A stretch of 60,779 nt of DNA from a virus, in IMG/VR virus record IMGVR_UViG_3300042982_000029, positions 1 to 60,779 of that record; one strand, 5' to 3'. The position numbers and the translations under genes are program-made. The notes under the pieces were generated by a model. The model had not been told where the DNA came from, searched no databases, and saw only the letters and a program-made list of their open reading frames with translations. Shown here one piece after another: positions 23,768-45,891 of the stretch (its first letter is position 1; every line of letters starts with the position of its first letter).

Positions 23768-26700
23768 TGAGCGGCATCGAAGAGCTTGCCCGGCGGCTCC
23801 TGTCGCTCGAGAAGGCCCAGATGGCCCGCTCCACCCCTCAGCTCGCGTACAGCTCGATCGAGAACGGCGCCCTCCGCGCTCACGACGACCTGTTCGGCGA
23901 GACCATGCAGATCGGTCTCCAGTGGGACGGCACGTACGCGCCCACCGTGACCAACGGCCCGACTCCGCCGACCCCGTCCGCGCCGCAGGTCCTGGACGCC
24001 ACTGAGGGCATCGTCGTCGGGTGGGACGGCTCGTTCGCCGGCGGCCTCATCCCGACCCCCATGGACTTCCTCCGCGTCGACGTGCACGTCGGCGCGACCA
24101 GCGACTTCATCCCGGACCACAACAACCGTCGGGCCTCGTTCGCGTCGCCGCAGGGCGGCTTCGCCAGCATCACGCTGGGCTACGGGACGTACTGGGTCAA
24201 GCTGGTGCTGTGGACCCTGGCCGGCAAGGTCAGTGCGGCGTCCACCGCGACCGAGGGCGACTCGTGGCCCGTCGAGGTGAGTTCGGACGGCTTCGCGCCG
24301 GCCAGCTCTCCCGACCCCACCGTCATTGGCGCCTACGAGACCCTCGTCGTCAAGTGGTCCCCGATCAGCAACGCCGACCCGGTCCGCTATCAGGTTCACG
24401 TCTCCACGACCACCGGCTTCACGCCGGGCCCGGACACGCTCGTCGACACCGTCCAGGGCGGCCAGTTCAGCATCAAGACACTGCCCGGCGAGGCGCCCGT
24501 CAACCCCGGCGACGTGGACCCGCGCAAGCTGCAGTACGACACCACGTACTACGTCAGGCTGGTCGCCGAGGACGACGACGGCACCGCCGCCCCGTCCGCC
24601 GAGGCTTCCGACCAGATCTTCCGCATCAACGGCGGCATGATCGGCGCGGAGACCATCGTCGGCGCGAACATCCTCGGTGGCACGATCACCGGCGACCTAC
24701 TGAGCTCCACGATGGTCATCTCGTCGGCGTTCTGGACGGCCCTGACCGGCCAGCGCGCCGGCTTCACCCCGGACGGCTTCTTCGCATACAAGCCTGACAA
24801 CTCGGCCATCCTGAAGATCCCGACCGATGGCAGCAACGCGCTGTACGACGGCGAACTCGTCGTGCGCGGCGCCACGATCCTGGGCGGCATGTCCATCCAG
24901 TCCGACGAGAACGAGCTGACCGCCGACGCCCGGATCACCCTGATGCGTGGCATCGTCTCGCCGACCGCGTCGCCCCAGATGGCCTTGGACTACGAATACG
25001 TCACGCCCAGCACGGCCGGACTGTCCAGCGCCCTGAAGACCGACATCCTTGGGACCTTCGACTTCGACGCGAACCAGATCTCCTGCATCGAGTGGCGAAG
25101 CACGCTGAACTTCTGGTCGATGTTCCAGGTCCGCCCTGGAGGCACGCGCGAGTGGTGGATCAACCCGGACGGTACGCCGCACGACATCACCGGCGCCGGG
25201 GACTACTTCCTCGACTGGAAGGACTGGGAGATCTGGTCGGCGACCGAGCTCCTCACGTCCACCAATCCGGCGCTCAACGGTCACTACCTGATGTTCCGAT
25301 TCATGCCGTCCGGAGACGACTACTGGGTATGCGCGCCGTCGGGAAACTATCGGTACTCGCGCCAAAACGGTATCCAGCCTCCGGTGATCGGGAACAACGG
25401 CCAGAGCATCTTCGTGGCCGAAGTGCCGACCATTGTGACCCCGCAGACCCATCTCCGCATTCGATACTACGAGCCGCTGCTGGACAATGGCGTCATGCCG
25501 GCGCCGACGACAGCGTACGAGTCGACCACGGGCTTCAGCTCGGGCACCGCCCTGGCCAACGTCCGGTACAGCACCACTGGATTCGACGTGTCCGGGGGCT
25601 CCGGCGCTCGCTACCTAGCGGCCGAACGAGGCAACTCGACGAACAACAAGATCCTGGTCACCTCGGGCACGAACGCCGACTCGATCTTCCCATCCGGCTC
25701 GGGCAACAACTGGTCGTCGGCCAACAAGGAGGCCCACTCCTTCGAGGCTCCGGCGTCGAACCGGCGCGGCTGTGACTGGGACGGTACGCAGTTCTGGACG
25801 CTGTCCGGCGATGGTCGGCTGTACAAGCACACGAACCAGTTCTGGGATCCCGCCACGACGTCCTCGACCCTCTGGGGCCAGACCACGTTCCGCGACGGTG
25901 ACTCTGGCGGAACCGGCACGCACGAGACGACTCCCGGCGCGGCGAAGTCCTTCACCTGGAAGCGTCGGTCCCGGTTCACGTTCGTCTCGCCGGACGTGCC
26001 TGACAATGGCGGCCCGGACGACCCGGACCGCGTGCGGTTCTACGTCGGCCGTGGCTTGACCAAGCCGGCCAACTCGGCCATGTTCCAGCAGTACGAGGGC
26101 ACCGGCACGGCGACGATCAGCACGCTCGCGACGTCCGGCAACGTTCCCCCGACCATCAACACGTTCCCGTCGGCCAACCCAGCCAAGATCCGCACCGATG
26201 ACGACGCCCTGGTCATCTCGGGCGACGGCACGATCAAGATCAACGGCGTCGACGTCGCGGTTGGCTCCCCCGTGCGTCAGATCTTCACGAGCTCGGGCAC
26301 GTGGACCAAGCCGGCCAACATCAAGGCCGTGCGGGTTCAGGTGCAGGGCGGTGGCGGCGCGGGTGGCGGTGCGGCTGCACTGTCGGCCGACGGCACGCAC
26401 TCCATGGGTTCCGGCGGCGGCGGCGGCGGGTACGCGGAGAAGTGGTTCCTCGCAGCCGACCTGGCCAGCTCCATTCCGGTCAGCGTTGGCGGCGGCGGCG
26501 TGGGTGCTTCGGCGGCAACCGGCGGCGGCGGCGGTGCATCGAACTTCCAGCACACCACGAACGTCGTCGGCAACGGTGGCGGCGGCGGCGGGCTCTTCGG
26601 GGCGACCGCCCTGGCCCTCGGCCCGGCTGTTGGTCAAGGTGGCTCGGCGACCGGCGGCGACACCAACCAGCAGGGCGGGGGGGGCGTGGCTGGCTGGGGC

Positions 26701-36671: not shown

Positions 36672-36866
36672 CTAGACGATGGTGTTGCCGTTGTCAACGC
36701 GGAACCCGAGGTGGTCCGCGATCCGCTGGACGAGCTCGAGCTGCCGCGTCATGCCGGCCCAGCCGTCGTCGTCGTGGTTCGGCTCGGCGATGATGATGCC
36801 GTCGAGCTTGATCTGCAGGGCTTCGTCGTTGATCTCGACGATCTGGAAGCGGGCCGGCGTGCTCAT
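36672..36866 (-). CDS. Hypothetical protein (64 aa)
   Basis: STPARFQIVEINDEALQIKL then a helix MTRQLELVQRIADHLGFRV. The start is placed at the ATG that overlaps the stop of the ligase gene (ATGA). Confidence 0.55.
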   Translation of the reverse strand: MSTPARFQIVEINDEALQIKLDGIIIAEPNHDDDGWAGMTRQLELVQRIADHLGFRVDNGNTIV

Positions 36867-37624
36867 CCGAGCCACACCCCGTTCGACTTCGTCAGCGGCT
36901 CCGGCGGGGTGAACGGCGTGCCCTTCGGGGCCGGATCGAACGGCCACTTGAAGAGCTGCTGGGCGGCCTCGTGGAAGATGACGACGCCCTCAGCCGGCTT
37001 GAAGCCCGGGGCTGCGTGGGAGCCGTGCTCGTCGAGGGCCTGCATGCAGTCCTCGATCTCCTTCTCGTCGAACGGGCCCTCGTACAGGACGGGGACAACG
37101 TCGAGCTCGGGGAGCAGCTCTTCGCCGGTGGCCGGGTCGATCTCGTCCTCGCGGGCGTGGTCGGGATCCCACAGGTGCGGGTACCGGGTCCGGTTGAACA
37201 GGCTGAACCGCCTCTCGCCCTTCGGCAGGCCGTAGCCGCGCTGGATGCCGGAGCCCCACCATTCGCCGTAGTGCCGGCCGACCCCGAGGGTCACCAGGAG
37301 CTGCTCGGCGTTCTCGAAGACCCAGGCGGCGAACCCGAAGTTGTCCTTCTCGGGCGTGATGAGCTGCTTGCGAGACTGGGCGCCGACCAGGAACAGCTTG
37401 GCGTTGGCTCCCTCGCCGCGCCGGAACGATCGGGCCTCGTACCGCCCCTCGCCGGGTCCGCCGAGCCAGGTGGTCAGCGTCGACCGGTCGGAGACCTCGA
37501 GGTCCGGGCGCGGGTCGGGGATCGCCTCGATGATCACGGCCGCGTTGGTGCCGTCGATCTTCTCGGTGACGACGATGTCCTTGTGGAGTCGGGGCAGCTT
37601 GGGCCAGGCGACGAAGTCCATCAT
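36863..37624 (-). CDS. RNA ligase, Rnl2-like
   Basis: 253 residues. Motif I is VVTEKIDGTNAAV (nucleotidyl Lys about residue 22), followed by GEWWGSGIQRGYG (motif III region) and PAEGVVIFHEA (motif IV), then LFKWPFD with a candidate motif V Lys. This is the covalent nucleotidyltransferase fold of T4 Rnl2-type ligases, which seal nicked or broken RNA. With the polynucleotide kinase and the second ligase it forms an RNA repair set. Confidence 0.8.
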   Translation of the reverse strand: MMDFVAWPKLPRLHKDIVVTEKIDGTNAAVIIEAIPDPRPDLEVSDRSTLTTWLGGPGEGRYEARSFRRGEGANAKLFLVGAQSRKQLITPEKDNFGFAAWVFENAEQLLVTLGVGRHYGEWWGSGIQRGYGLPKGERRFSLFNRTRYPHLWDPDHAREDEIDPATGEELLPELDVVPVLYEGPFDEKEIEDCMQALDEHGSHAAPGFKPAEGVVIFHEAAQQLFKWPFDPAPKGTPFTPPEPLTKSNGVWLG

Positions 37625-37830
37625 CCGAGTCCCTCCGTCTCCCAGGCAGCGTACTGCTTGTCGTCGTCGTACTCGTGGTCGCCGAACTCGATCTCCGACG
37701 CGGCCACGCCGGTCCGGTCGGCCAGGTAGTCGAACGCCTTGGCCAGGGCGTTCAGCTCCTGGCCGTTGGTCGGCCGGTTGAACGTGACCCGAATGTCGAG
37801 CTTGTCCGGCTTGTTGTCCGGGATGCCCAT
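37621..37830 (-). CDS. Hypothetical protein (69 aa)
   Basis: MGIPDNKPDKLDIRVTFNRP then a helix and acidic tail (FGDHEYDDDKQY). It is coupled to the Rnl2-like ligase by ATGATG overlap and has a promoter just upstream. Confidence 0.6.
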   Translation of the reverse strand: MGIPDNKPDKLDIRVTFNRPTNGQELNALAKAFDYLADRTGVAASEIEFGDHEYDDDKQYAAWETEGLG

Positions 37831-37868
37831 GGGTGCTCCTCTCGCTGGGAAAGTATCTGCTGAGTGGT

Positions 37869-37897
37869 ACTTTGCCAGCTTTCCCCGGGCATGTCAA
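37869..37897 (-). promoter_or_regulatory. Sigma-70-like promoter before ligase operon
   Basis: Minus strand: TTGACA (37892-37897), 17-base spacer, CAAAGT (37869-37874). It drives the 69-aa gene and the Rnl2-like ligase. Confidence 0.65.
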
Positions 37898-37929
37898 GAG
37901 GCCCTGTCCAGATCATGGACAGGGCCTCT
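37897..37929 (-). terminator. Intrinsic terminator
   Basis: 13-bp perfect stem AGAGGCCCTGTCC / GGACAGGGCCTCT after the stop at 37951. The next promoter begins at its foot. Confidence 0.8.
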
Positions 37930-37950
37930 CGGGTAGCGCTCAGGGGACGA

Positions 37951-38187
37951 TCAGGCGCCGGCGACCGGCTGGCCCTTCTCGTCGTAGTTCTCGTTGCCGG
38001 CGAGCGGCTCCGGGTTGTTCGCCGGCGTGGTCGGGTCGAACGGGTTGATGCCCGGGTGCCGGCCGTTGAAGATCACGGAGCTGCGCGGGGCCTTGCCCAG
38101 CGGGACAGCGGTGGACGCGCTGGCCGCAGCGAACTCAGAGTCCGCGATCTCGCCAACGATGCGGCTCGGGCCATCGGGTGCGGCCAT
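37951..38187 (-). CDS. Hypothetical protein (78 aa)
   Basis: Low-complexity Ala/Pro/Asn-rich sequence (EIADSEFAAASASTAVPLG, INPFDPTTPANNPEPLAG). It is probably disordered; between two hairpins it may form its own short transcript. Confidence 0.55.
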   Translation of the reverse strand: MAAPDGPSRIVGEIADSEFAAASASTAVPLGKAPRSSVIFNGRHPGINPFDPTTPANNPEPLAGNENYDEKGQPVAGA

Positions 38188-38234
38188 GGTTTCCTCCAGT
38201 AGAATCGAGTGGTTCTCAACCCCCAGGGTACCAC

Positions 38235-38534
38235 TCAGTGGTTGGGGTGCTCCTCGCCGGGACGGAACTTCTCGGCCTTGCGAGCGGCTCGAGCCGCCCG
38301 CCCCTGCATGGAAGTGCGCTTATTGTGATGAAACGAGCACAAAAGGCGAAGCTTGTGTAAACGGTGGTCGTCCGGGTCGCCGACGTGGTCGACGTCCGTG
38401 CCCTTCCGGGGGCACCGCTTACCGGACGGAAGGCGCCAACGACACCGACCATTGTCACGTTCCTTGATCGCGGGGACGATCTCCGACTCCCAGTTGGGAG
38501 GGAGATCGCGCCCCTTCTCGTCGCCCCAGGTCAC
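38235..38534 (-). CDS. HNH nuclease
   Basis: 99 residues from a GTG overlapping the previous gene's stop. CRWRLPSGKRCPRKGTDVDH, PDDHRLHKLRLLCSFHHNKR and an MQGRAARAARK tail are the classic small HNH of actinophages, often helping terminase to cut. Here it lies far from terminase. One motif copy lies inside (38354-38363). Confidence 0.8.
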   Translation of the reverse strand: MTWGDEKGRDLPPNWESEIVPAIKERDNGRCRWRLPSGKRCPRKGTDVDHVGDPDDHRLHKLRLLCSFHHNKRTSMQGRAARAARKAEKFRPGEEHPNH

Positions 38535-39682
38535 GGCCGACCCCGGAACCGCCGGACCGGCCGCTCCTGGCCGAACGCGTAGATCTCGACGTCATCGCTC
38601 GCCCGCAGGTGCTGCCGGGCCCGCGCGGTGTCCACGGCCGTCCAGCCTGGGATCTGCTCCCAGAGCCTCTCGTGCGACAGCCCGGCCTGGGCGGCCCGGA
38701 CCAGCGCGTCCGCCTGGGCGGCCGTGAGCCGTCCGACGACGTCCGGCGGTACCCCGATGAGCTGGGCGATCTTCTCGGTCAGCCTCTTCGCCTCCCCGAC
38801 GAACGTCTCGCCGACACCGTCAGCCGTGAACGACCTGATCCCACCCGGGCCGACCTTCACCTTGCGCCGGCCGGCCTGGAAGTCATCGTACGGGATGCAC
38901 GAGCCCCACCAGCGCCCCGCGTCGGCCTTGGTGTCGAACCGCAGCCGCGACACACGGCCGGGCCAGGCCTTATGGAACAGTTGGAGGACGTACTGCCCGA
39001 TGCTGTGGTCGTAGTTCGAGTCGAGGATCTCCGTGGACCAGCCGCGCCGCCGGTAGTCGTCGGCCGACCAGTTGTCCACGGGCGACTCCAGGTTCGGGCC
39101 GGACGGGATCATCGGTCGGACCTCAACGTAGTGATCGGCCGCATTGAACGCCTTCTCGTGCTCGAGCTCGCCGTCCCACAGGCCACCGAATCCCCGGTAC
39201 CCCATGAAGGCCTCGAGGGCGCGGTTGTCCTCGAAGATCACGCGGATCTTGTGCTTGCCGTTCCGGCTCTTCGTGCAGACGAAGTGCGCGAGCATGTTGT
39301 GGCTGCCGGGGACCTTCGACTTGCCGGACCACCGGAAGCCGAGCTTCTCGACCGCAGCACGGCTGACCTTCCGCCGGGCCGGGTCGACGTGATCGGCCGG
39401 TGCGTCCAGGGCCGCGAGCTCGTCGTCGAGCTTCTTCTGCCAGAGCTCCGGGCCGAGCTGGACGTCGCACGTGATGCACAACGTTGCGACCAGTTCGTTG
39501 GGTTTGAACGCGTTCGACCGGATGTCGACGAGCCCGTGGTCGGCGTGCCGGGAGTCGGACTCCAGCAGCTCGAGCTTCGCCCGCTCGCCGGCGCGGTCAG
39601 CGCGGACCCACTTGATCAGGGCCACCCAGCAGGCGGAGAGCGCCCCGCTGGCCCCGAGGACGGCGAGTGTCTCGACGATCAT
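38531..39682 (-). CDS. Large membrane-anchored protein of unknown function
   Basis: 383 residues. One N-terminal hydrophobic segment (ETLAVLGASGALSACWVALI) then a charged cytosolic body with CITCDVQLG, KSKVPGSHNMLAHFVCTKSR, RWWGSCIPYDDFQAGRRKVK and a helical C-terminus (PPDVVGRLTAAQADALVRAA). No family recognised. Confidence 0.65.
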   Translation of the reverse strand: MIVETLAVLGASGALSACWVALIKWVRADRAGERAKLELLESDSRHADHGLVDIRSNAFKPNELVATLCITCDVQLGPELWQKKLDDELAALDAPADHVDPARRKVSRAAVEKLGFRWSGKSKVPGSHNMLAHFVCTKSRNGKHKIRVIFEDNRALEAFMGYRGFGGLWDGELEHEKAFNAADHYVEVRPMIPSGPNLESPVDNWSADDYRRRGWSTEILDSNYDHSIGQYVLQLFHKAWPGRVSRLRFDTKADAGRWWGSCIPYDDFQAGRRKVKVGPGGIRSFTADGVGETFVGEAKRLTEKIAQLIGVPPDVVGRLTAAQADALVRAAQAGLSHERLWEQIPGWTAVDTARARQHLRASDDVEIYAFGQERPVRRFRGRP

Positions 39683-39918
39683 TCGACCCTCCGGGTCTCC
39701 TCGATGGCCTCCTCGAGCATGCCGCGCGCCGCCCAGCTCGTGATGTCGGACGACGAACGGGTCGTGAGCCACTGCCCTCCGGCGACGTCGGACCACTCGG
39801 CGATGCACAGCCACTTCGTGCACATGACCATGTCGACCCCGAACTGCTCGGCCAGCGCGCTGGCCGCAGCCTGGACGGCCTCGTTCATTAGTTCCTGCAG
39901 GTTCTTCGTCTCCGCCAT
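39679..39918 (-). CDS. Hypothetical protein (79 aa)
   Basis: Helical start (LQELMNEAVQAAASALAEQF) then CTKWLCIAEWSDVAGGQWL. Overlaps the next gene by ATGA. Confidence 0.55.
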   Translation of the reverse strand: MAETKNLQELMNEAVQAAASALAEQFGVDMVMCTKWLCIAEWSDVAGGQWLTTRSSSDITSWAARGMLEEAIEETRRVE

Positions 39919-39919
39919 A

Positions 39920-40081
39920 TCAGGCCTCCTCGTCCTCGATGATCCAGTGCGCCGGGATCCAGCGGTCCTTACCGGACTCGGGTCGAATGTACACGCAGTC
40001 CCCGAGGTCGCGCAACACCTCGGCCATCTCCGGCTCGCGGCCGGGAGCGGTCGATGGGCGCCACGTGATCAGTCTGCTCAT
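39920..40081 (-). CDS. Small hypothetical protein (53 aa)
   Basis: MSRLITWRPSTAPGREPEMA through RWIPAHWIIEDEEA. Overlaps the gene upstream by 4 bases. Unknown. Confidence 0.55.
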   Translation of the reverse strand: MSRLITWRPSTAPGREPEMAEVLRDLGDCVYIRPESGKDRWIPAHWIIEDEEA

Positions 40082-40338
40082 ACGCGGTGTCCAGCGCGGA
40101 TCGCGGCGGCCTTGCGGCGGGCCTCACGGGCCTGGTACTCGCTCTGCTCCATCCCCCGGCGGGCCAGGAGCTGCAGGGCTGAGTTGGCCTCCAGGCCGGC
40201 CGAGAGGGTCAGCGTCAGCCGGTACGCCGAGGCGGCCATGTCGCACGAGCTCGCCTCCGCGTCCAGCACGCGGGCTCGCCTCTCCCGCCGGGCGTCGCGC
40301 ATCCGGCGGTACAGCTTCAGGATCGCGTTCTCGAGCAT
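40078..40338 (-). CDS. Hypothetical basic helical protein (86 aa)
   Basis: Starts LENAILKLYRRMRDARRERR and is helical and Arg-rich throughout. No family known. Confidence 0.55.
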   Translation of the reverse strand: MLENAILKLYRRMRDARRERRARVLDAEASSCDMAASAYRLTLTLSAGLEANSALQLLARRGMEQSEYQAREARRKAAAIRAGHRV

Positions 40339-40340
40339 GG

Positions 40341-40973
40341 TCAGCCCTCCAGGATCATCGGCTCGGAGTGGCACGGGCAGATCGGGAAGCCGACCTCGTC
40401 CAGCCATTTCTGAGTGGTGCGGACCTTGTAGATCTTCTTCTTGTCCCGGCCGGCGGCGACGCCTTCCTCGCACAGGACCAGGAGCTGCCGGTTGGTGTCG
40501 CGCTTCGGGGCGATCGGGGTGCCGGACGCGCCTCCCTTGGTGAGTTTGCCGTGCGGGTACTTGCCGAGCTTCTCCGCGATCCGCTTGAAGATCTCGGCCA
40601 GCTCCTCGCCGTACGCGACCTCGGTGGCCTTGCCGGTCATGCCGACCGCGCGGAAGGTCCGGAGGAACGCGCCCTTGTGCCCGCTCGCGCAGTCGTCCCA
40701 GGCGTGGATCATCTCGTGGGTCAGGCAGGCCAGGAGCTCCATGACGTCCTTGAGGACGGGGGAGATGAAGATCGACGGGTCCCCGTCCTCGTTCCAGGCC
40801 CGGTTGAAGCACTGGCCGATCGTGGAGGAGCGGGTGCCCTTGCCGGCCGGCCAGCCAACGCTGACCTGGAAGTCGGGGACCTCGAAGTCGTTCGGGGCGA
40901 ACACCTCGGCGCGGAGCTCGTCGGCGGCGGCCGTCAGCCACTGCTCGCGGGTGGTCCACTTCACGTCGGTCAC
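40341..40973 (-). CDS. SprT-like zinc metalloprotease
   Basis: 210 residues, GTG start with GTGA overlap. The active-site helix LLACLTHEMIHAWDDCAS carries HExxH, followed by GHKGAFLRTF; the C-terminus PICPCHSEPM is a zinc-ribbon fragment, as in SprT/Spartan-like proteins that cut DNA-bound proteins. The phage role is unknown; removing host proteins from DNA is a guess. Confidence 0.75.
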   Translation of the reverse strand: MTDVKWTTREQWLTAAADELRAEVFAPNDFEVPDFQVSVGWPAGKGTRSSTIGQCFNRAWNEDGDPSIFISPVLKDVMELLACLTHEMIHAWDDCASGHKGAFLRTFRAVGMTGKATEVAYGEELAEIFKRIAEKLGKYPHGKLTKGGASGTPIAPKRDTNRQLLVLCEEGVAAGRDKKKIYKVRTTQKWLDEVGFPICPCHSEPMILEG

Positions 40974-41203
40974 TTGGTCACCGGCTTTCCGCTCGGGTCG
41001 AACTCCATGTCGACCGCAGCCTCCCAGGAGCGCCGCTCGGTGTTGTCCAGGCCGTACTCGTGATCGAAGGTGGCGACCTGGATGATGGTCTGGGCGGCCA
41101 TGAAGTGCCCGTGCGCCAGGCCGATCAGCCGCTCTGGTGCGCGGGCGGTCTCGGCCTTCTTCATCAGGACCTTTGCCTCTTTGAAGTGCTCGTAGGCTTC
41201 CAT
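40970..41203 (-). CDS. Hypothetical protein (77 aa)
   Basis: Helical (YEHFKEAKVLMKKAETARAP, LAHGHFMAAQTIIQVATF). Upstream of the SprT-like gene, overlapping it by four bases. Confidence 0.55.
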   Translation of the reverse strand: MEAYEHFKEAKVLMKKAETARAPERLIGLAHGHFMAAQTIIQVATFDHEYGLDNTERRSWEAAVDMEFDPSGKPVTK

Positions 41204-41224
41204 CGTGGTGCTCCTCTCGCTCGT

Positions 41225-41234
41225 CGTGTAAACG
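41225..41234 (+). repeat. GTGTAAACG motif, intergenic copy
   Basis: Full CGTGTAAACG, 22 bases upstream of the ATG of the 77-aa gene. Confidence 0.75.
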
Positions 41235-41294
41235 ACCCTACACGCACCTCGGCTCCGGGTGCAATACCCGGGGCCGGATGTCTCACGATGCGGA

Positions 41295-41507
41295 CTACTT
41301 GCCTTGGTTGCGGCGGCGCATCTTCGCCTCGCGCTCGCGGCGCTCCTTCTCCGCCTTCTTGCCGGCCTTGTAGGCCTTCATGACCGCGCGGTCCTGGGCC
41401 TTCTTTTTCTTGGCAGCCTCACGGGCGGCGCGCTGCCGCATCTTCTTGATCGCGGCCTCCTCGCGCTGCCGCTGCTCCCGTCGCCGAGAGACCTCATCCT
41501 TAGCCAT
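41295..41507 (-). CDS. Small highly basic protein (70 aa)
   Basis: Almost entirely Lys/Arg/Ala/Glu helix (VSRRREQRQREEAAIKKM, KKKKAQDRAVMKAYKAGK). Possibly binds nucleic acid. Confidence 0.6.
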   Translation of the reverse strand: MAKDEVSRRREQRQREEAAIKKMRQRAAREAAKKKKAQDRAVMKAYKAGKKAEKERREREAKMRRRNQGK

Positions 41508-41545
41508 GTGCTGAACTCCTAACTCTCGGTGAAATGTTGCCGTAC

Positions 41546-41578
41546 AACCTGGACTATGGTCAGCCCTTATTCCAGGTT
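41546..41578 (-). terminator. Hairpin at the end of the kinase gene
   Basis: AACCTGGA (41546-41553) / TCCAGGTT (41571-41578), overlapping the stop of the kinase gene. It may terminate or stabilise the transcript. Confidence 0.5.
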
Positions 41579-42554
41579 AGAACGCGCCCGGGGCGACCTG
41601 CAGGCAGGTCAAACCCAGCGAGCGCCACATCTCCACGACCTGGTCGCGGTCGTCCAGTACGAACTGGACGTCGTAGATGTGACGGACGTGCTCGTTGAAC
41701 AGCTCCAGCTTGACGACCGAGTCGCGCCGGTTGTCCCCCTCGGGCCGCATGAACAGCTCAACATTGCGGTCCAGGCGCTCGTCCGGGTCGTCGAAGGTGT
41801 CAGCCTCCAGGATCAGCTCAGCGTCGCGCTCGAGCCAGAGCAGCGTGTCCGCGCGGCAGACCTCGTCGCGGCCGGACATGAAGATCACGTGCGCGTCGTC
41901 GCCCCGGTCGGTGTACGAGAACTTGTACCGCTCGACGAGCTCGGCGATCGGGATGTTGACGTCGTCCTCGAGTACCCGGTCCCAGTCGTACGCCTTGCGG
42001 CCGTTCATCAGGGCCAGCGTGCCGTCCAGGTCCACCAGGATCGCCTTCGGCGCGCCCTCGACCGGCACGTACGGCTTGGAGTCCTCGCCCAGGACAGGCT
42101 CGTACGGCGGCACCGGTGGCAGGCCGCCGGCGATGTTGAACCGGACGAACTGGTTCTGGATGACGTGCGCGCCGACGCGGTGGAGCACGTCTCGCTGGGC
42201 GTCCTGTGCCTTGCAGAGCTCGATCGGCACGTGGAGGAAGTGGTCGACGACGTCGAACTCGGCGCCCTCCTCGTACGCGATCTTCGAGAACTGCCGGGCG
42301 TGCTTCAGTGCCAGGTTGGTGTCGTCGACCACGACGGTGTGGCCGCGCCGGAGCAGCGTGCGGATCGTGTCCTGCTGGATCTTCGTGACGGTCACTTCGA
42401 ACTCGTGGCCGTGCTGGTACCCGCCAAACAGCATCGCCCGAAGGTCGTCGCGGTTCACGCGGTGCCGGTTGGCGATGTCCTGCGCGCAGAAGTCCTTCGC
42501 CCAGGTGGTCTTGCCGGATCCGGACGGGCCTCGCGTGATGATCAGCTTGCTCAA
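41577..42554 (-). CDS. Polynucleotide kinase / 3'-phosphatase (T4 Pnkp-like)
   Basis: 325 residues. P-loop TRGPSGSGKTTW (residues 8-18) and RVNRDDLRAMLFGG then VVVDDTNLA form the 5'-kinase; the C-terminal half has the acyl-phosphatase motif ILVDLDGTLA (about 175) and IFMSGRDE, the 3'-phosphatase. The enzyme heals RNA ends for ligation. Same domain order and size as T4 Pnkp. Its neighbours are Rnl1-like and tRNA genes. Confidence 0.9.
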   Translation of the reverse strand: MSKLIITRGPSGSGKTTWAKDFCAQDIANRHRVNRDDLRAMLFGGYQHGHEFEVTVTKIQQDTIRTLLRRGHTVVVDDTNLALKHARQFSKIAYEEGAEFDVVDHFLHVPIELCKAQDAQRDVLHRVGAHVIQNQFVRFNIAGGLPPVPPYEPVLGEDSKPYVPVEGAPKAILVDLDGTLALMNGRKAYDWDRVLEDDVNIPIAELVERYKFSYTDRGDDAHVIFMSGRDEVCRADTLLWLERDAELILEADTFDDPDERLDRNVELFMRPEGDNRRDSVVKLELFNEHVRHIYDVQFVLDDRDQVVEMWRSLGLTCLQVAPGAF

Positions 42555-42574
42555 GATGAGCTCCTCTCGTTGGC

Positions 42575-42604
42575 GTGCCCCCGATCCTCGCAGATCGGGG
42601 GCAC
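42575..42604 (-). terminator. Intrinsic terminator upstream of kinase gene
   Basis: 12-bp perfect stem GTGCCCCCGATC / GATCGGGGGCAC with a 6-base loop, just after the stop of the 64-aa gene. Confidence 0.8.
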
Positions 42605-42608
42605 CGTG

Positions 42609-42803
42609 TCAACCTCGGCCGGGACCGTGTTTCAGATGCCGGCCCCGCTTGCCGCACCGCTTCTCGGTCCCCCACCGGTCGCGGTACGACGCGTTGCACT
42701 TCGGCTTGGACGGGTCGTGCAGGTCGCGGCCGTCATCCTTCGGGCCGAACGACTTGGGCGTCGGATTGCCCCGCTTGCCGGGCTTCTTCGGTCCGCCAAC
42801 CAT
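42609..42803 (-). CDS. Small basic protein (64 aa)
   Basis: MVGGPKKPGKRGNPTPKSFG and KCNASYRDRWGTEKRCGKRG; Lys/Arg/Gly-rich with two Cys, perhaps nucleic-acid binding. Confidence 0.55.
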   Translation of the reverse strand: MVGGPKKPGKRGNPTPKSFGPKDDGRDLHDPSKPKCNASYRDRWGTEKRCGKRGRHLKHGPGRG

Positions 42804-43015
42804 CAGTAGAAGAACTTCCCGGCAGCTTTGGCGGCGGCCTTCTTGTCCTTCTTCGCCTGCTTTTTGTACAGCTCCTTGTCGCGCTTGTCCTCGTGATTCG
42901 GGCGCGAGCTCGTCCTGAATCCGACGATGTCGCGACGGTGCTGCGTCTTGTCCGTCTTGGTGTCCGCGTCCCACTTGGAGTTACCGCCCATCAGGGCGTC
43001 CCAGATAGCTCCCAT
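42803..43015 (-). CDS. Small charged protein (70 aa)
   Basis: MGAIWDALMGGNSKWDADTK then a Lys/Ala-rich helical tail. It abuts the downstream start by one base. Unknown. Confidence 0.55.
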   Translation of the reverse strand: MGAIWDALMGGNSKWDADTKTDKTQHRRDIVGFRTSSRPNHEDKRDKELYKKQAKKDKKAAAKAAGKFFY

Positions 43016-43031
43016 AGGTATCGGGCTCCTC

Positions 43032-43205
43032 TCAGTTGCCGTGCCGGTGCGGCACGTTGGCGTTCTTCGTGCAGTACAGGGTGACCTTCGAGCCGTTCGG
43101 CATCGTCTTGGTCTTGAAGGCGACGCCGCACTTGCGGTACTGCGCCTTCTTGTTCTTGTCCCGCTTCTGCGAGACCTCGTCCTTCTTCTTGCGGCCCCAG
43201 GCCAT
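43032..43205 (-). CDS. Small Cys/Lys-rich protein (57 aa)
   Basis: MAWGRKKKDEVSQKRDKNKK then YRKCGVAFKTKTMPNG and LYCTKNANVPH. Resembles the two small basic genes downstream, so this may be a local family of small basic proteins. Confidence 0.55.
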   Translation of the reverse strand: MAWGRKKKDEVSQKRDKNKKAQYRKCGVAFKTKTMPNGSKVTLYCTKNANVPHRHGN

Positions 43206-43206
43206 G

Positions 43207-43440
43207 TTAGACCTCCGGTGGTTTGTGCGACTCGAGCGGCACCTCGTAGAGGAACGTCGCTGGCTCGAACTGACCTTCGTACTCCGGGTAGCGTAGCGCG
43301 GGCCGACCGTCACTGTCAACGATGATGCCCAGAATGCGGACACTTCCCGAGTCAACGTCGGCCGTCAGCGCGACGACCGGGTTGCGGACGCCGTACTCCC
43401 CGACGGCGTCCGCGAGCAGATTGCCCAGTGTCTTGCTCAC
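43207..43440 (-). CDS. Hypothetical protein (77 aa)
   Basis: GTG start overlapping the stop of the Rnl1-like gene (GTGA). SKTLGNLLADAVGEYGVRNP then a beta-rich part (VVALTADVDSGSVRILGIIV). Translational coupling suggests a functional link to the ligase. Confidence 0.55.
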   Translation of the reverse strand: MSKTLGNLLADAVGEYGVRNPVVALTADVDSGSVRILGIIVDSDGRPALRYPEYEGQFEPATFLYEVPLESHKPPEV

Positions 43441-44591
43441 TTGATGTACAGCTTCGGCTCGTAGGAACCCGGGGTCTGGCCGGCCGGCGGCTGCAGGTCC
43501 TTCCAGATCCGCTTCGTGATGTCCTTGCCGTCGAGCTGCGCGAAGAACGCCCAGGCGTCCTCCTCGGCCTCCTGGAACAGCCGCGCCAGGGCGCCACGCT
43601 TGTCCCGGTCGACGTACCAGCCCTCCTCCTCGTCCAGGCCGACCAGACCGCCCTTGAATGCGTACGACATGGTGTTCTGGTACGAGTCGACCAGGTCGCG
43701 GTATCGGCGCTTGAAGTTGTTCTGGATCTCCGTGTAAACGCCACGGGTCCAGGCGTGGAACTCGTCCGGCAGCGGCTCGAGGATGTCGCCGATGACCTGG
43801 CCGTCCAGGATCGCCTCGTAGACGCGGCGGGTCGACAGGCCGAACACGATCCGGTGCAGCAGCAGGTAGTCCTCCTGCTTCAGCTTCACCATCTTGTCGG
43901 TGCCGCGCTGCCGTACGACGTAGCCCTCGGCGTTCGGCCGGGGCGGGGCCGCCAGGGCGTCCGCGAAGGTCGCGAAGTGGAAGTGATCGGCGCGCGGGCC
44001 GGTCCAGCCGTGGAAGTTGGCCGTGACGCGAGTGTTGTTCACGAACCCCGTCTCGAGCTCGACCGAGCCCAGCAGCACCAGCATGTCGGCGTCGCCGTAG
44101 TCCAGCACGATCCGGTTGTCCGGGTAGACGATCTCGAACAGGATCGTGTCGTCGTCGGCCGGCACGAAGTCGCTGTACTCGCGGTCGAACAGCTCGGTGG
44201 CGTGGACGGCCTGGTCGGACGTGAACGACCCGCGCGTCGCGATCGCGTAGCCGCCCGCGTTCGGCCGGCGGTACAGGATGCCGAGCGAGCCGTCGACCTT
44301 GTCCTGGACCTCGACCTCGGCGTCCAGTGGGATCTGCGCGGCCTGCGGCTGGCCGTGGTTCCAGAACTTCGGGAACGGCCGGGCGACGATCGTGCCATCC
44401 GTCGTGTTCCAGATCAGCCCACGGCAGTAGTTCAGCGAGGGGACCTGCTCGAATAGCTCGGGCTTGGTCTGCGCACGGTCGGTGTAGTTGATGATCCGCA
44501 GCGGCTCGGTCGGGTGGGTCTGCTCGCGGATGTAGCCGTTGGCCAGCAGCCAGCCGAGCTCGTCGGCCGGGGTCAGGTCGTACAGGTGCAC
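43437..44591 (-). CDS. RNA ligase, T4 Rnl1-like
   Basis: 384 residues, GTG start. The nucleotidyl motif is EVQDKVDGSLGILY (Lys near residue 99); FEIVYPDNRIV, NAEGYVVRQ and MVKLKQEDYLLLH supply motifs IIIa, IV and V. The N-terminal RGLIWN and C-terminal helical domain (YAFKGGLVGLDEEEGW) resemble T4 Rnl1, which reseals tRNA-Lys cut by host anticodon nuclease. It lies next to the tRNA array whose first-encountered gene is tRNA-Lys(CTT). One motif copy lies at 43731-43740. Confidence 0.85.
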   Translation of the reverse strand: MHLYDLTPADELGWLLANGYIREQTHPTEPLRIINYTDRAQTKPELFEQVPSLNYCRGLIWNTTDGTIVARPFPKFWNHGQPQAAQIPLDAEVEVQDKVDGSLGILYRRPNAGGYAIATRGSFTSDQAVHATELFDREYSDFVPADDDTILFEIVYPDNRIVLDYGDADMLVLLGSVELETGFVNNTRVTANFHGWTGPRADHFHFATFADALAAPPRPNAEGYVVRQRGTDKMVKLKQEDYLLLHRIVFGLSTRRVYEAILDGQVIGDILEPLPDEFHAWTRGVYTEIQNNFKRRYRDLVDSYQNTMSYAFKGGLVGLDEEEGWYVDRDKRGALARLFQEAEEDAWAFFAQLDGKDITKRIWKDLQPPAGQTPGSYEPKLYIK

Positions 44592-44664: not shown

Positions 44665-44715
44665 GTCTCAAGAAATGAGACAAGCCCCGGCGGGTGTCGG
44701 CCCGCCAGGGCTTGT
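44665..44715 (-). terminator. Terminator of the tRNA array
   Basis: Long stem ACAAGCCC-GGCGGG / CCCGCC-GGGCTTGT (44680-44715) followed by a second small hairpin GTCTCA-AGAAA-TGAGAC (44665-44681). It separates tRNAs from the Rnl1-like promoter. Confidence 0.75.
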
Positions 44716-44902
44716 CGGTCCGGGTTGGATTTAGAGGGCCCGTACCCCTTGACGGCATGCGCTCCGGCGAGGCGGGCATTTGCGGGTGCCAGCCGGGCAG
44801 TAAGGTGCCAGCTAAGGGTCGAACCTTCCGGATTTGGCCGAACGATAGCGCCCCCGTGAGCACGAACTCGTCCTGCTGGTCCACCGGCCAGACGTTACCC
44901 TG

Positions 44903-44977
44903 TAGGCCCCGTGGGACTCGAACCCACAACCCTCCCGGTAAGAGCGGGATGCGCTAATCCAATTGCGCCAGAGACCC
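44903..44977 (-). tRNA. tRNA-Lys (CTT)
   Basis: Acceptor GGGTCTC/GGGGCCT (with wobble pairs), D-stem GCGC/GCGC, anticodon stem TCCCG/CGGGA with loop CTCTTAC, T-arm GTGGG-TTCGAGT-CCCAC, discriminator A. CCA is not encoded. Confidence 0.85.
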
Positions 44978-45070
44978 TCGCGGGAGTGCCGGATCGGGGT
45001 CATCACTCCGCCGCCGGCTGGCCAGTCGATGATCCCCGGAATCCCTTCCGAGGTACTGGCCCTCCCTCGC

Positions 45071-45142
45071 TCCGAAGGCAGGACTCGAACCTGCAACCCT
45101 GGGATCAACAATCCCCTGCTCTACCAGTTGAGCCACTTCGGA
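45071..45142 (-). tRNA. tRNA-Asn (GTT)
   Basis: Acceptor TCCGAAG/CTTCGGA, D-stem GCTC/GAGC, anticodon loop TTGTTGA, T-arm GCAGG-TTCGAGT-CCTGC, discriminator G. The anticodon stem has one G.A mismatch at its top. CCA is not encoded. It starts one base after the mini-tmRNA ends. Confidence 0.85.
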
Positions 45143-45143
45143 A

Positions 45144-45226
45144 TGGTGGAGCTGTCGGGAATCGAACCCGCGTCCTGCCCGTTCCGCAAGCGGTCTTACG
45201 GGCAGTCGATGCCAATGCTCAGCCCC
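45144..45226 (-). ncRNA. Mini-tmRNA: tmRNA tRNA-like domain without mRNA-like region
   Basis: 83 nt. The 5' end GGGGCTGAGCATTGGCATCG, then AC, and the 3' end GGACGCGGG-TTCGATT-CCCGACAGCTCCACCA follow the conserved ends of bacterial tmRNA. The acceptor GGGGCTG/CAGCTCC has the G3.U70 wobble and A73 that alanyl-tRNA synthetase reads, and CCA is encoded, unlike in the neighbouring tRNAs. Where tmRNA has pseudoknots and the tag-encoding region (about 270-300 nt) there is only a P2-like hairpin: TGCCCGT/ACGGGCA capped by CCG-CTTG-CGG. There is no tag reading frame ending in Ala-Ala nearby. It should be alanylated and might bind SmpB; function unknown. Confidence 0.75.
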
Positions 45227-45306
45227 TCGGGCCTACCTTGCCACTGTCCGGCTGCATGCTCCCCGGCCTCTCGGCGGTCGAACCGGCCATCGTTCCGACT
45301 CTTTCG

Positions 45307-45379
45307 CGGTCGAGACGGGACTCTAACCCGCAACCGACGCCTCGACAGGGCGCTGCTCTCCCAATTGAGCTACTCGACC
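45307..45379 (-). tRNA. tRNA-Asp (GTC)
   Basis: Acceptor GGTCGAG/CTCGACC, D-stem GCTC/GAGC, anticodon stem GCGCC/GGCGT with loop CTGTCGA, discriminator G. The T-loop reads TTAGAGT: the normally universal C56 is A, which should weaken the elbow pair with G19. Confidence 0.8.
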
Positions 45380-45493
45380 AATGCCGCTGGTGGGTGCACC
45401 CTGTCGGGATCACTCAGGCCGGCCTGATTCTCCCTGTAGACCCCGAGCCGCCAACGGACTCTCCAACTCGGGCGCTGAATGAGTCAGCTCTCG

Positions 45494-45566
45494 TGCGCGA
45501 TCCCGGATTTGAACCAGGGACATCCGGCGTTTGGGCCGGCGCTCTACCAGGCTGAGCTAATCGCAC
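45494..45566 (-). tRNA. tRNA-like gene with six-base anticodon loop, identity unclear
   Basis: Acceptor GTGCGAT/ATCGCGC, D-arm GCTC-AGCCTGGTA-GAGC, T-arm CCTGG-TTCAAAT-CCGGG and discriminator A are normal. The anticodon stem CCGGC/GCCGG closes a loop of only six bases, CCAAAC, without U33. A base may have been lost (CCA, Trp-like, or CAA, Leu-like), or the RNA is no longer a decoding tRNA. Confidence 0.65.
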
Positions 45567-45644
45567 AGCGGCTACCATGTCTCCGCTTACCCGAGGATCA
45601 ATTTCACCGATCTGACCTTTCAGCCAAACCCCTCGGCCCTTCCG

Positions 45645-45716
45645 CATCGGACGAGGGATTTGAACCCTCACTACGGGGTTGAGAACCCCGCGTGCTGCCG
45701 ATTACACCAGCCCGAC
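45645..45716 (-). tRNA. tRNA-Glu (CTC)
   Basis: Acceptor GTCGGGC/GTCCGAT (two wobble pairs), D-stem GTGT/GCAC, anticodon stem CGGGG/CCCCG with loop TTCTCAA, T-arm GAGGG-TTCAAAT-CCCTC, discriminator G. Confidence 0.85.
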
Positions 45717-45818
45717 TCGACGGCACCGCGAGGGTTTGCCCAACAGGGGTTGACACCCTGTCCAAGCCGCGTTGCACCGTCTTTCGCTCAGGGCCCACCC
45801 CTGGGATCCCTTCGCTAG

Positions 45819-45891
45819 TGGCGGGAGTCGGACTCGAACCGACAAACGCTGGGTCATGAGCCCAGTGTGCATTCCATCGCACCATCCCGCT
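45819..45891 (-). tRNA. tRNA-Met (CAT), initiator-like
   Basis: Anticodon loop CTCATGA on stem CTGGG/CCCAG. The three G-C pairs next to the loop, and an unpaired first position (A1.C72), are hallmarks of initiator tRNA. The D-stem (T11-A24) and T-loop TTCGAGT are elongator-like, and G37 is unusual. It could also be an Ile-CAT type read after lysidine modification. Confidence 0.75.

What the first reader, a model, noticed from the sequence alone, without database searches (positions are those of the whole stretch)
45144..45226. A phage 'mini-tmRNA': tmRNA ends with the tag-encoding region replaced by a hairpin
Seen: an 83-nt minus-strand RNA starts GGGGCTGA and ends CAGCTCCACCA, pairs as a 7-bp acceptor with G3.U70 and A73, and encodes its own CCA. 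Between the conserved ends lies only TGCCCGT/ACGGGCA with a CCG-CTTG-CGG cap. Known: bacterial tmRNA shares these ends, is charged with alanine through G3.U70, and rescues stalled ribosomes with SmpB and an internal tag reading frame. Inferred: this RNA could be charged and enter stalled ribosomes but could not tag or release them, so it may be a decoy blocking host trans-translation, or a new rescue or regulatory RNA. I know of no natural counterpart.
Basis: partly seen in the sequence, partly recalled or inferred. Interest (0 to 1): 0.9.

Follow-up and report, generated by a model that had tools for sequence, protein, structure and literature searches.

The report
Phage tmRNA reduced to tRNA half
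This bacterial virus carries a tiny tmRNA with the tag-coding part cut out, one member of a widespread viral family found here that probably jams the host's system for rescuing stuck ribosomes; a single phage example was already known.

Summary
At 45144-45226(-) lies an 83-nt RNA that Rfam's tmRNA model matches end to end (59.8 bits, cut-off 47) with 302 model positions replaced by 9 nt. It keeps the 7-bp acceptor with G3.U70, A73 and CCA, the tmRNA D-loop and T-arm, and a short P2 hairpin; no tag frame, pseudoknots or second tmRNA piece. It sits 1 nt upstream of tRNA-Asn in a tRNA array.

It is not alone. Pattern scans of IMG/VR gave 53 distinct sequences of 61-81 nt (this one included), and five cultured Streptomyces phages carry unannotated ones. 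P2 covaries strongly (6 of 6 pairs change on both sides; 0/500 shuffles as high); G3.U70 is kept in 57/57, and in 34/34 found without demanding U70. No tested record encodes SmpB or a full tmRNA.

A counterpart was already known: mycobacteriophage DS6A has a 'TLD only' ssrA, and a similar molecule strongly inhibits tmRNA (PMC4131195, PMC11915505). Best reading: a TLD-only tmRNA that uses host AlaRS, SmpB and EF-Tu and blocks host trans-translation. Conserved G3.U70 suggests charging matters, which simple SmpB titration would not require.

Verdict: new member of a known but almost unexplored kind.

The parts
45144..45226 (-). mini-tmRNA (TLD-only tmRNA), 83 nt with encoded CCA
   Evidence: Rfam RF00023 59.8 bits, model 1-374; model R1 81.2 bits
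45220..45226 (-). 5' strand of acceptor stem GGGGCTG; G3 at 45224
   Evidence: sequence; G3.U70 in 57/57
45205..45219 (-). tmRNA-type D-loop region AGCATTGGCATCGAC (no conserved D-stem), with the equivalent of SmpB-contacting U17
   Evidence: alignment to RF00023; U17 position kept in 52/53
45198..45204 (-). P2 stem 5' strand TGCCCGT
   Evidence: covariation in 58 distinct sequences
45194..45197 (-). A-rich internal loop AAGA between P2 and its cap
   Evidence: columns mostly A or G
45184..45193 (-). apical hairpin CCG-CTTG-CGG
   Evidence: fold; weaker, variable pairing in relatives, 69.9% of cells
45176..45182 (-). P2 stem 3' strand ACGGGCA
   Evidence: covariation
45172..45175 (-). GGAC linker; its A is the equivalent of E. 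coli A334 in the SmpB pocket
   Evidence: A in 53/53; pocket described in PMC8363625
45155..45171 (-). T-arm GCGGG-TTCGATT-CCCGA
45144..45154 (-). acceptor 3' strand CAGCTCC (U70 at 45150), A73 and encoded CCA; the six neighbouring tRNA genes encode no CCA
45818..45891 (-). tRNA-Met(CAT), first tRNA of the array
   Evidence: ARAGORN, Rfam
45644..45716 (-). tRNA-Glu(CTC)
45493..45566 (-). tRNA with a 6-nt anticodon loop (CCAAAC), identity unclear
45306..45379 (-). tRNA-Asp(GTC), upstream neighbour
45069..45142 (-). tRNA-Asn(GTT), 1 nt downstream of the mini-tmRNA, so both should come from one processed transcript (inferred)
44902..44977 (-). tRNA-Lys(CTT), last of the array
44679..44716 (-). 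terminator-like 16-bp hairpin and T-rich tail after the array
   Evidence: consensus scan only
43437..44591 (-). T4 Rnl1-type RNA ligase gene next to the array
   Evidence: phrog_562 1.5e-59; PF09511 1.2e-11
41577..42554 (-). polynucleotide kinase/phosphatase (RNA repair)
   Evidence: phrog_505 9.8e-90; PF25109

Best explanation
It is a tmRNA reduced to its tRNA-like domain plus a short capped P2. It is made as part of the phage tRNA transcript and trimmed like a tRNA (inferred). Host AlaRS charges it through G3.U70, and host SmpB and EF-Tu bind it (inferred from conserved determinants). The complex competes with host tmRNA for SmpB and for the A site of stalled ribosomes. Having no resume codon it cannot switch the ribosome to a tag frame, so it inhibits host trans-translation during infection. 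Shown here: the anatomy, the family and its conservation. Reported by others: inhibition by a similar molecule. Not shown: expression or activity of this RNA.
For: Full-length tmRNA model match with the coding domain deleted. 53 distinct viral sequences of 61-81 nt with P2 covariation (score 0.583 against 0.121 in shuffles, 0/500). G3.U70 in 57/57, and in 34/34 from scans that did not demand U70, while pair 5-68 varies freely and 4-69 somewhat. SmpB-pocket nucleotides U17 and A334 kept in 52/53 and 53/53 (pocket in PMC8363625). No SmpB in 21 records, no full tmRNA in 40 records. [quoted passage not shown] PMC11915505).
Against: The inhibition experiment was done with another molecule and is read here second-hand. 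Inhibition there did not need alanine, yet G3.U70 is invariant here, so pure SmpB titration does not explain all conservation. No expression data. Many records are fragments, so absence of SmpB or a full tmRNA is weak evidence.
Confidence: 0.6

Rival explanations
1. Tag-less rescue: the alanylated RNA with SmpB enters stalled ribosomes, takes over the nascent chain and is then lost or hydrolysed (for example by peptidyl-tRNA hydrolase), freeing ribosomes without marking phage proteins for destruction.
For: G3.U70, A73, T-arm and SmpB contacts are all kept, as expected if the charged form is what works. Tag-less mitochondrial tmRNAs are conserved with a mitochondrial SmpB and thought to help with incomplete mRNAs (PMC11915505).
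Against: No known step would release the ribosome without a stop codon, and a similar molecule inhibits tmRNA.
Confidence: 0.22
2. A regulatory RNA or alanine donor that uses the tmRNA fold for something other than trans-translation, for example through the recurrent apical loop.
For: The cap sequence AAAGCCGCAYGCGG recurs and is nearly unchanged in five Streptomyces phages although P2 varies.
Against: The cap is absent in the 61-65 nt forms and its pairing holds in only 69.9% of cells.
Confidence: 0.1
3. Decaying remnant of a full phage tmRNA, without function.
For: The copy in phage Alone3 has mismatches in P2 and the T-stem.
Against: Strong covariation in P2 and invariant G3.U70 and A73 across many contigs; sizes cluster at 61-81 nt: 45 loci with spacer 10-40 nt, 4 with 41-71, 4 with 72-102, at least 120 at full size.
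Confidence: 0.05
4. An attachment site: a copy of the 3' end of host tmRNA used for phage integration.
For: Phages often integrate at tmRNA genes; Gordonia phage Ruthy has a tmRNA 3'-end fragment at its integrase gene.
Against: The window has no tyrosine or serine integrase. The 5' half and P2 are present and covary. The Ruthy fragment scores only 28 bits with model R1 against 58-89 for the 61-81 nt forms.
Confidence: 0.03

Closest known systems
TLD-only ssrA of mycobacteriophage DS6A (Hudson 2014, PMC4131195; Mao 2009, cited there)
   Same: Phage tmRNA consisting of little more than the tRNA-like domain, no tag frame; inhibition of tmRNA by a similar molecule reported.
Tag-less tmRNAs of mitochondria (jakobids, oomycetes) and ~65-bp plastid forms of Mallomonadaceae (PMC11915505)
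   Same: tmRNA tRNA-like domain without tag frame.
   Different: Mitochondrial genes are usually permuted; they serve their own organelle rather than a parasite of a cell with intact tmRNA.
Full-length phage tmRNAs (for example mycobacteriophages Bxz1, Wildcat and Kumao)
   Same: Same kind of ends and G3.U70, often near tRNA genes.
   Different: They keep the tag frame and pseudoknots (about 350-410 nt).
Bacterial tmRNA, Rfam RF00023
   Same: Acceptor stem, D-loop, T-arm and base of P2.
   Different: 302 of 374 model positions are replaced by 9 nt.

Membership tests
tmRNA (RF00023) | Score above the curated covariance-model cut-off, both ends | tested here: met
   59.8 against 47 bits, model 1-374
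tmRNA (RF00023) | G3.U70 and A73 alanine identity elements | tested here: met
   sequence; 57/57 relatives
tmRNA (RF00023) | Internal tag reading frame and pseudoknots | tested here: not met
   only a 29-nt hairpin between the D-loop region and the GGAC linker
TLD-only (CDS-less) tmRNA, as in phage DS6A | tmRNA tRNA-like domain without tag frame | tested here: met
TLD-only (CDS-less) tmRNA, as in phage DS6A | Inhibits host tmRNA activity | not testable with these tools
   reported for a similar molecule (PMC4131195)
Two-piece or permuted tmRNA | A second RNA piece or circular permutation in the same record | tested here: not met
   one tmRNA match only in the record; permuted model only 26.5 bits, below 47
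tRNA | Cloverleaf with D-stem and anticodon arm | tested here: not met
   ARAGORN reports none here; the tmRNA model wins in the clan
Integration attP at tmRNA | Integrase in the element, only the 3' tmRNA end present | tested here: not met
   no integrase; 5' end present

The most novel reading that the evidence does not exclude
A broad family of virus-specific mini-tmRNAs acts in the charged form on stalled ribosomes, either trapping them or freeing them without a tag, and so is a dedicated viral counter to (or substitute for) bacterial trans-translation rather than a passive SmpB sponge.
Probability: 0.35. Interest if true: 0.8.

Novelty: new member of a known kind. Interest (0 to 1): 0.55.

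Why it matters
Until now one phage, DS6A, and a few organelles were on record with a tag-less tmRNA of this form; the 2025 tmRNA database counts only nine 'standard, no CDS' sequences (PMC11915505). The 53 distinct viral sequences of 61-81 nt found here, and five cultured phages that carry such genes, make the question 'do phages attack trans-translation, and why?' open to direct test. The invariant G3.U70 suggests that the charged state is selected, which bears on how such RNAs act. ARAGORN missed every one it was run on, so they are likely absent from most phage annotations.

Tried and rejected
One search used a pattern one base out of register and found nothing; kept as a negative control. 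The genome-contig scan returned 117 loci, but nearly all are an internal GGGGCTGAGAAAA stretch in the 3' half of ordinary actinobacterial tmRNA, not minis; sampled ones score 36-49 bits with model R1 against 58-89. L177 was dropped: it is a permuted tmRNA. DS6A could not be fetched, and the papers of Mao 2009 and Jacob 2004 are not held, so their content is cited second-hand. Other isolated phages whose tmRNA 3'-end BLAST matches were checked (Kumao, SlimJimmy, SM1, Rb1, QDWS595, BUCT628, QDWS359, S-CRM01) carry full or permuted tmRNAs. The idea that UAA/UAG/UGA at the A-rich loop is a built-in stop codon was dropped: several members lack it (for example L010 and L186). No mini matched the strict pattern in 396 genomes of the phylum of Streptomyces naganishii.

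Full report
What was checked. Rfam's tmRNA model RF00023 aligns to it from first to last position with 59.8 bits against a cut-off of 47; the alignment shows the ends of tmRNA joined by a short hairpin where 302 model positions are replaced by 9 nt. The RNA folds to the expected structure. Chance is excluded: no match in 200 shuffled windows.

Setting. The record is a 60.8-kb viral contig with terminase, portal, capsid, tape measure, endolysin and primase genes. Its distant protein matches are to phages of actinobacteria and it has a weak WhiB-like match below that family's cut-off, so an actinobacterial host is inferred. The RNA lies in an array of six tRNA genes on the minus strand, 1 nt upstream of tRNA-Asn, which implies a shared, processed transcript (inference). 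A terminator-like hairpin follows the array. Next to it are a T4-type RNA ligase gene and, further on, a polynucleotide kinase and a second RNA ligase, the usual tools of phage tRNA repair (own knowledge). The RNA alone among the seven encodes its CCA.

A family. Pattern scans of IMG/VR found 22, then 45 and 41 loci in overlapping sets. A covariance model built from 28 of them found a match in each of 69 sources, 58 distinct. One, L177, is a permuted tmRNA. Fifty-three distinct ones, the window included, are 61-81 nt long and four are 100-120 nt. Sizes are not a continuum: with closely similar patterns, spacers of 10-40 nt gave 45 loci, 41-71 gave 4, 72-102 gave 4, and 290-320 (full-length tmRNA) at least 120. 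The loci range from about 35 to 68% G+C and include contigs of 111-180 kb. All 40 records searched have exactly one tmRNA match above cut-off, the mini itself, and none of 21 encodes SmpB. No match to the strict pattern occurs in 396 genomes of the phylum of Streptomyces naganishii.

Cultured phages. Streptomyces phages Alone3, LuckySocke, GiJojo, BRock and pSt2308 each have one downstream of a tRNA-Val gene, not annotated as an RNA; in GiJojo a hypothetical CDS is drawn over it. Their acceptor stems covary (GGGGCUG/CAGCUCC, GGGUCUG/CAGAUCC, GGGUUUG/CAAAUCC) and all keep G3.U70.

Selection. In 58 distinct sequences all six modelled P2 pairs show changes on both sides, 92.5% of P2 cells pair, and no shuffle of 500 reaches the covariation score; sliding the partner by one base drops paired cells from 93.9% to 60% or less. 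The alignment was fitted to the model, which leans the counts towards the structure. G3.U70 holds in 57 of 57. Two scans demanded G3 but not U70, and there 34 of 34 distinct sequences have U70, while pair 5-68 changes freely and 4-69 somewhat. A73 and the A of GGAC are invariant and U17 nearly so; U17 and A334 line the pocket for SmpB Trp122 in E. coli (PMC8363625). Caveat: the patterns demanded CGA or TCGAC and part of the T-arm, so invariance of those letters is partly by construction.

Mechanism. A tmRNA fragment with SmpB and EF-Tu is enough to occupy a stalled ribosome in a published structure (cited in PMC8363625). Without a resume codon the switch to a tag frame cannot happen. A molecule like DS6A's strongly inhibits tmRNA, whether or not chargeable, perhaps by titrating SmpB (PMC4131195, PMC11915505). 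A competitor of host tmRNA is therefore the best reading. The strict conservation of G3.U70 adds something: if titration of SmpB were all, the alanine identity pair should drift like its neighbours. Charging is probably used, so action on the ribosome itself (trap or tag-less rescue) deserves a test. Expression is not shown here; [quoted passage not shown]

Comparison and novelty. What is new is the breadth of the viral family, the conserved capped P2, the cultured carriers and the evidence on charging.

Noticed in passing
window 45493-45566 (-): A tRNA gene with a 6-nt anticodon loop (CCGGC-CCAAAC-GCCGG); ARAGORN cannot name it. Either a lost base, perhaps U33, or an unusual tRNA.
   Followed up: no
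window 36863-44591 (-): A T4-like RNA repair set: Rnl1-type ligase, polynucleotide kinase/phosphatase and a second RNA ligase beside the tRNA array, suggesting defence against anticodon nucleases.
   Followed up: partly
L147, L149, L158, L164, L168: Even shorter forms of 61-65 nt in which P2 has only a small, mostly A-rich loop; most lie in contigs near 35% G+C.
   Followed up: partly
L024, L025, L026, L027: Four longer forms (100-120 nt) with an extra stretch in the hairpin; not checked for a very short tag frame.
   Followed up: no
L321 502-582 (Streptomyces phage GiJojo): The mini-tmRNA is annotated over by hypothetical CDS 44, which may be spurious.
   Followed up: no
minis in L005, L006, L010, L161, L162, L170, L171, L184, L320-L323: The cap CCGCAYGCGG, often preceded by AAAG, recurs almost unchanged although P2 varies; its role is unknown.
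   Followed up: partly
window 25965-26029 (+): Marginal Rfam match to the L31 leader of Actinobacteria (36.8 bits, cut-off 35) inside a tail fibre frame; probably chance.
   Followed up: no
L028-L144: Many actinobacterial tmRNAs contain an internal GGGGCTGAGAAAA about 50 nt before the GGAC and T-arm, which mimics a tmRNA 5' end in pattern searches.
   Followed up: yes
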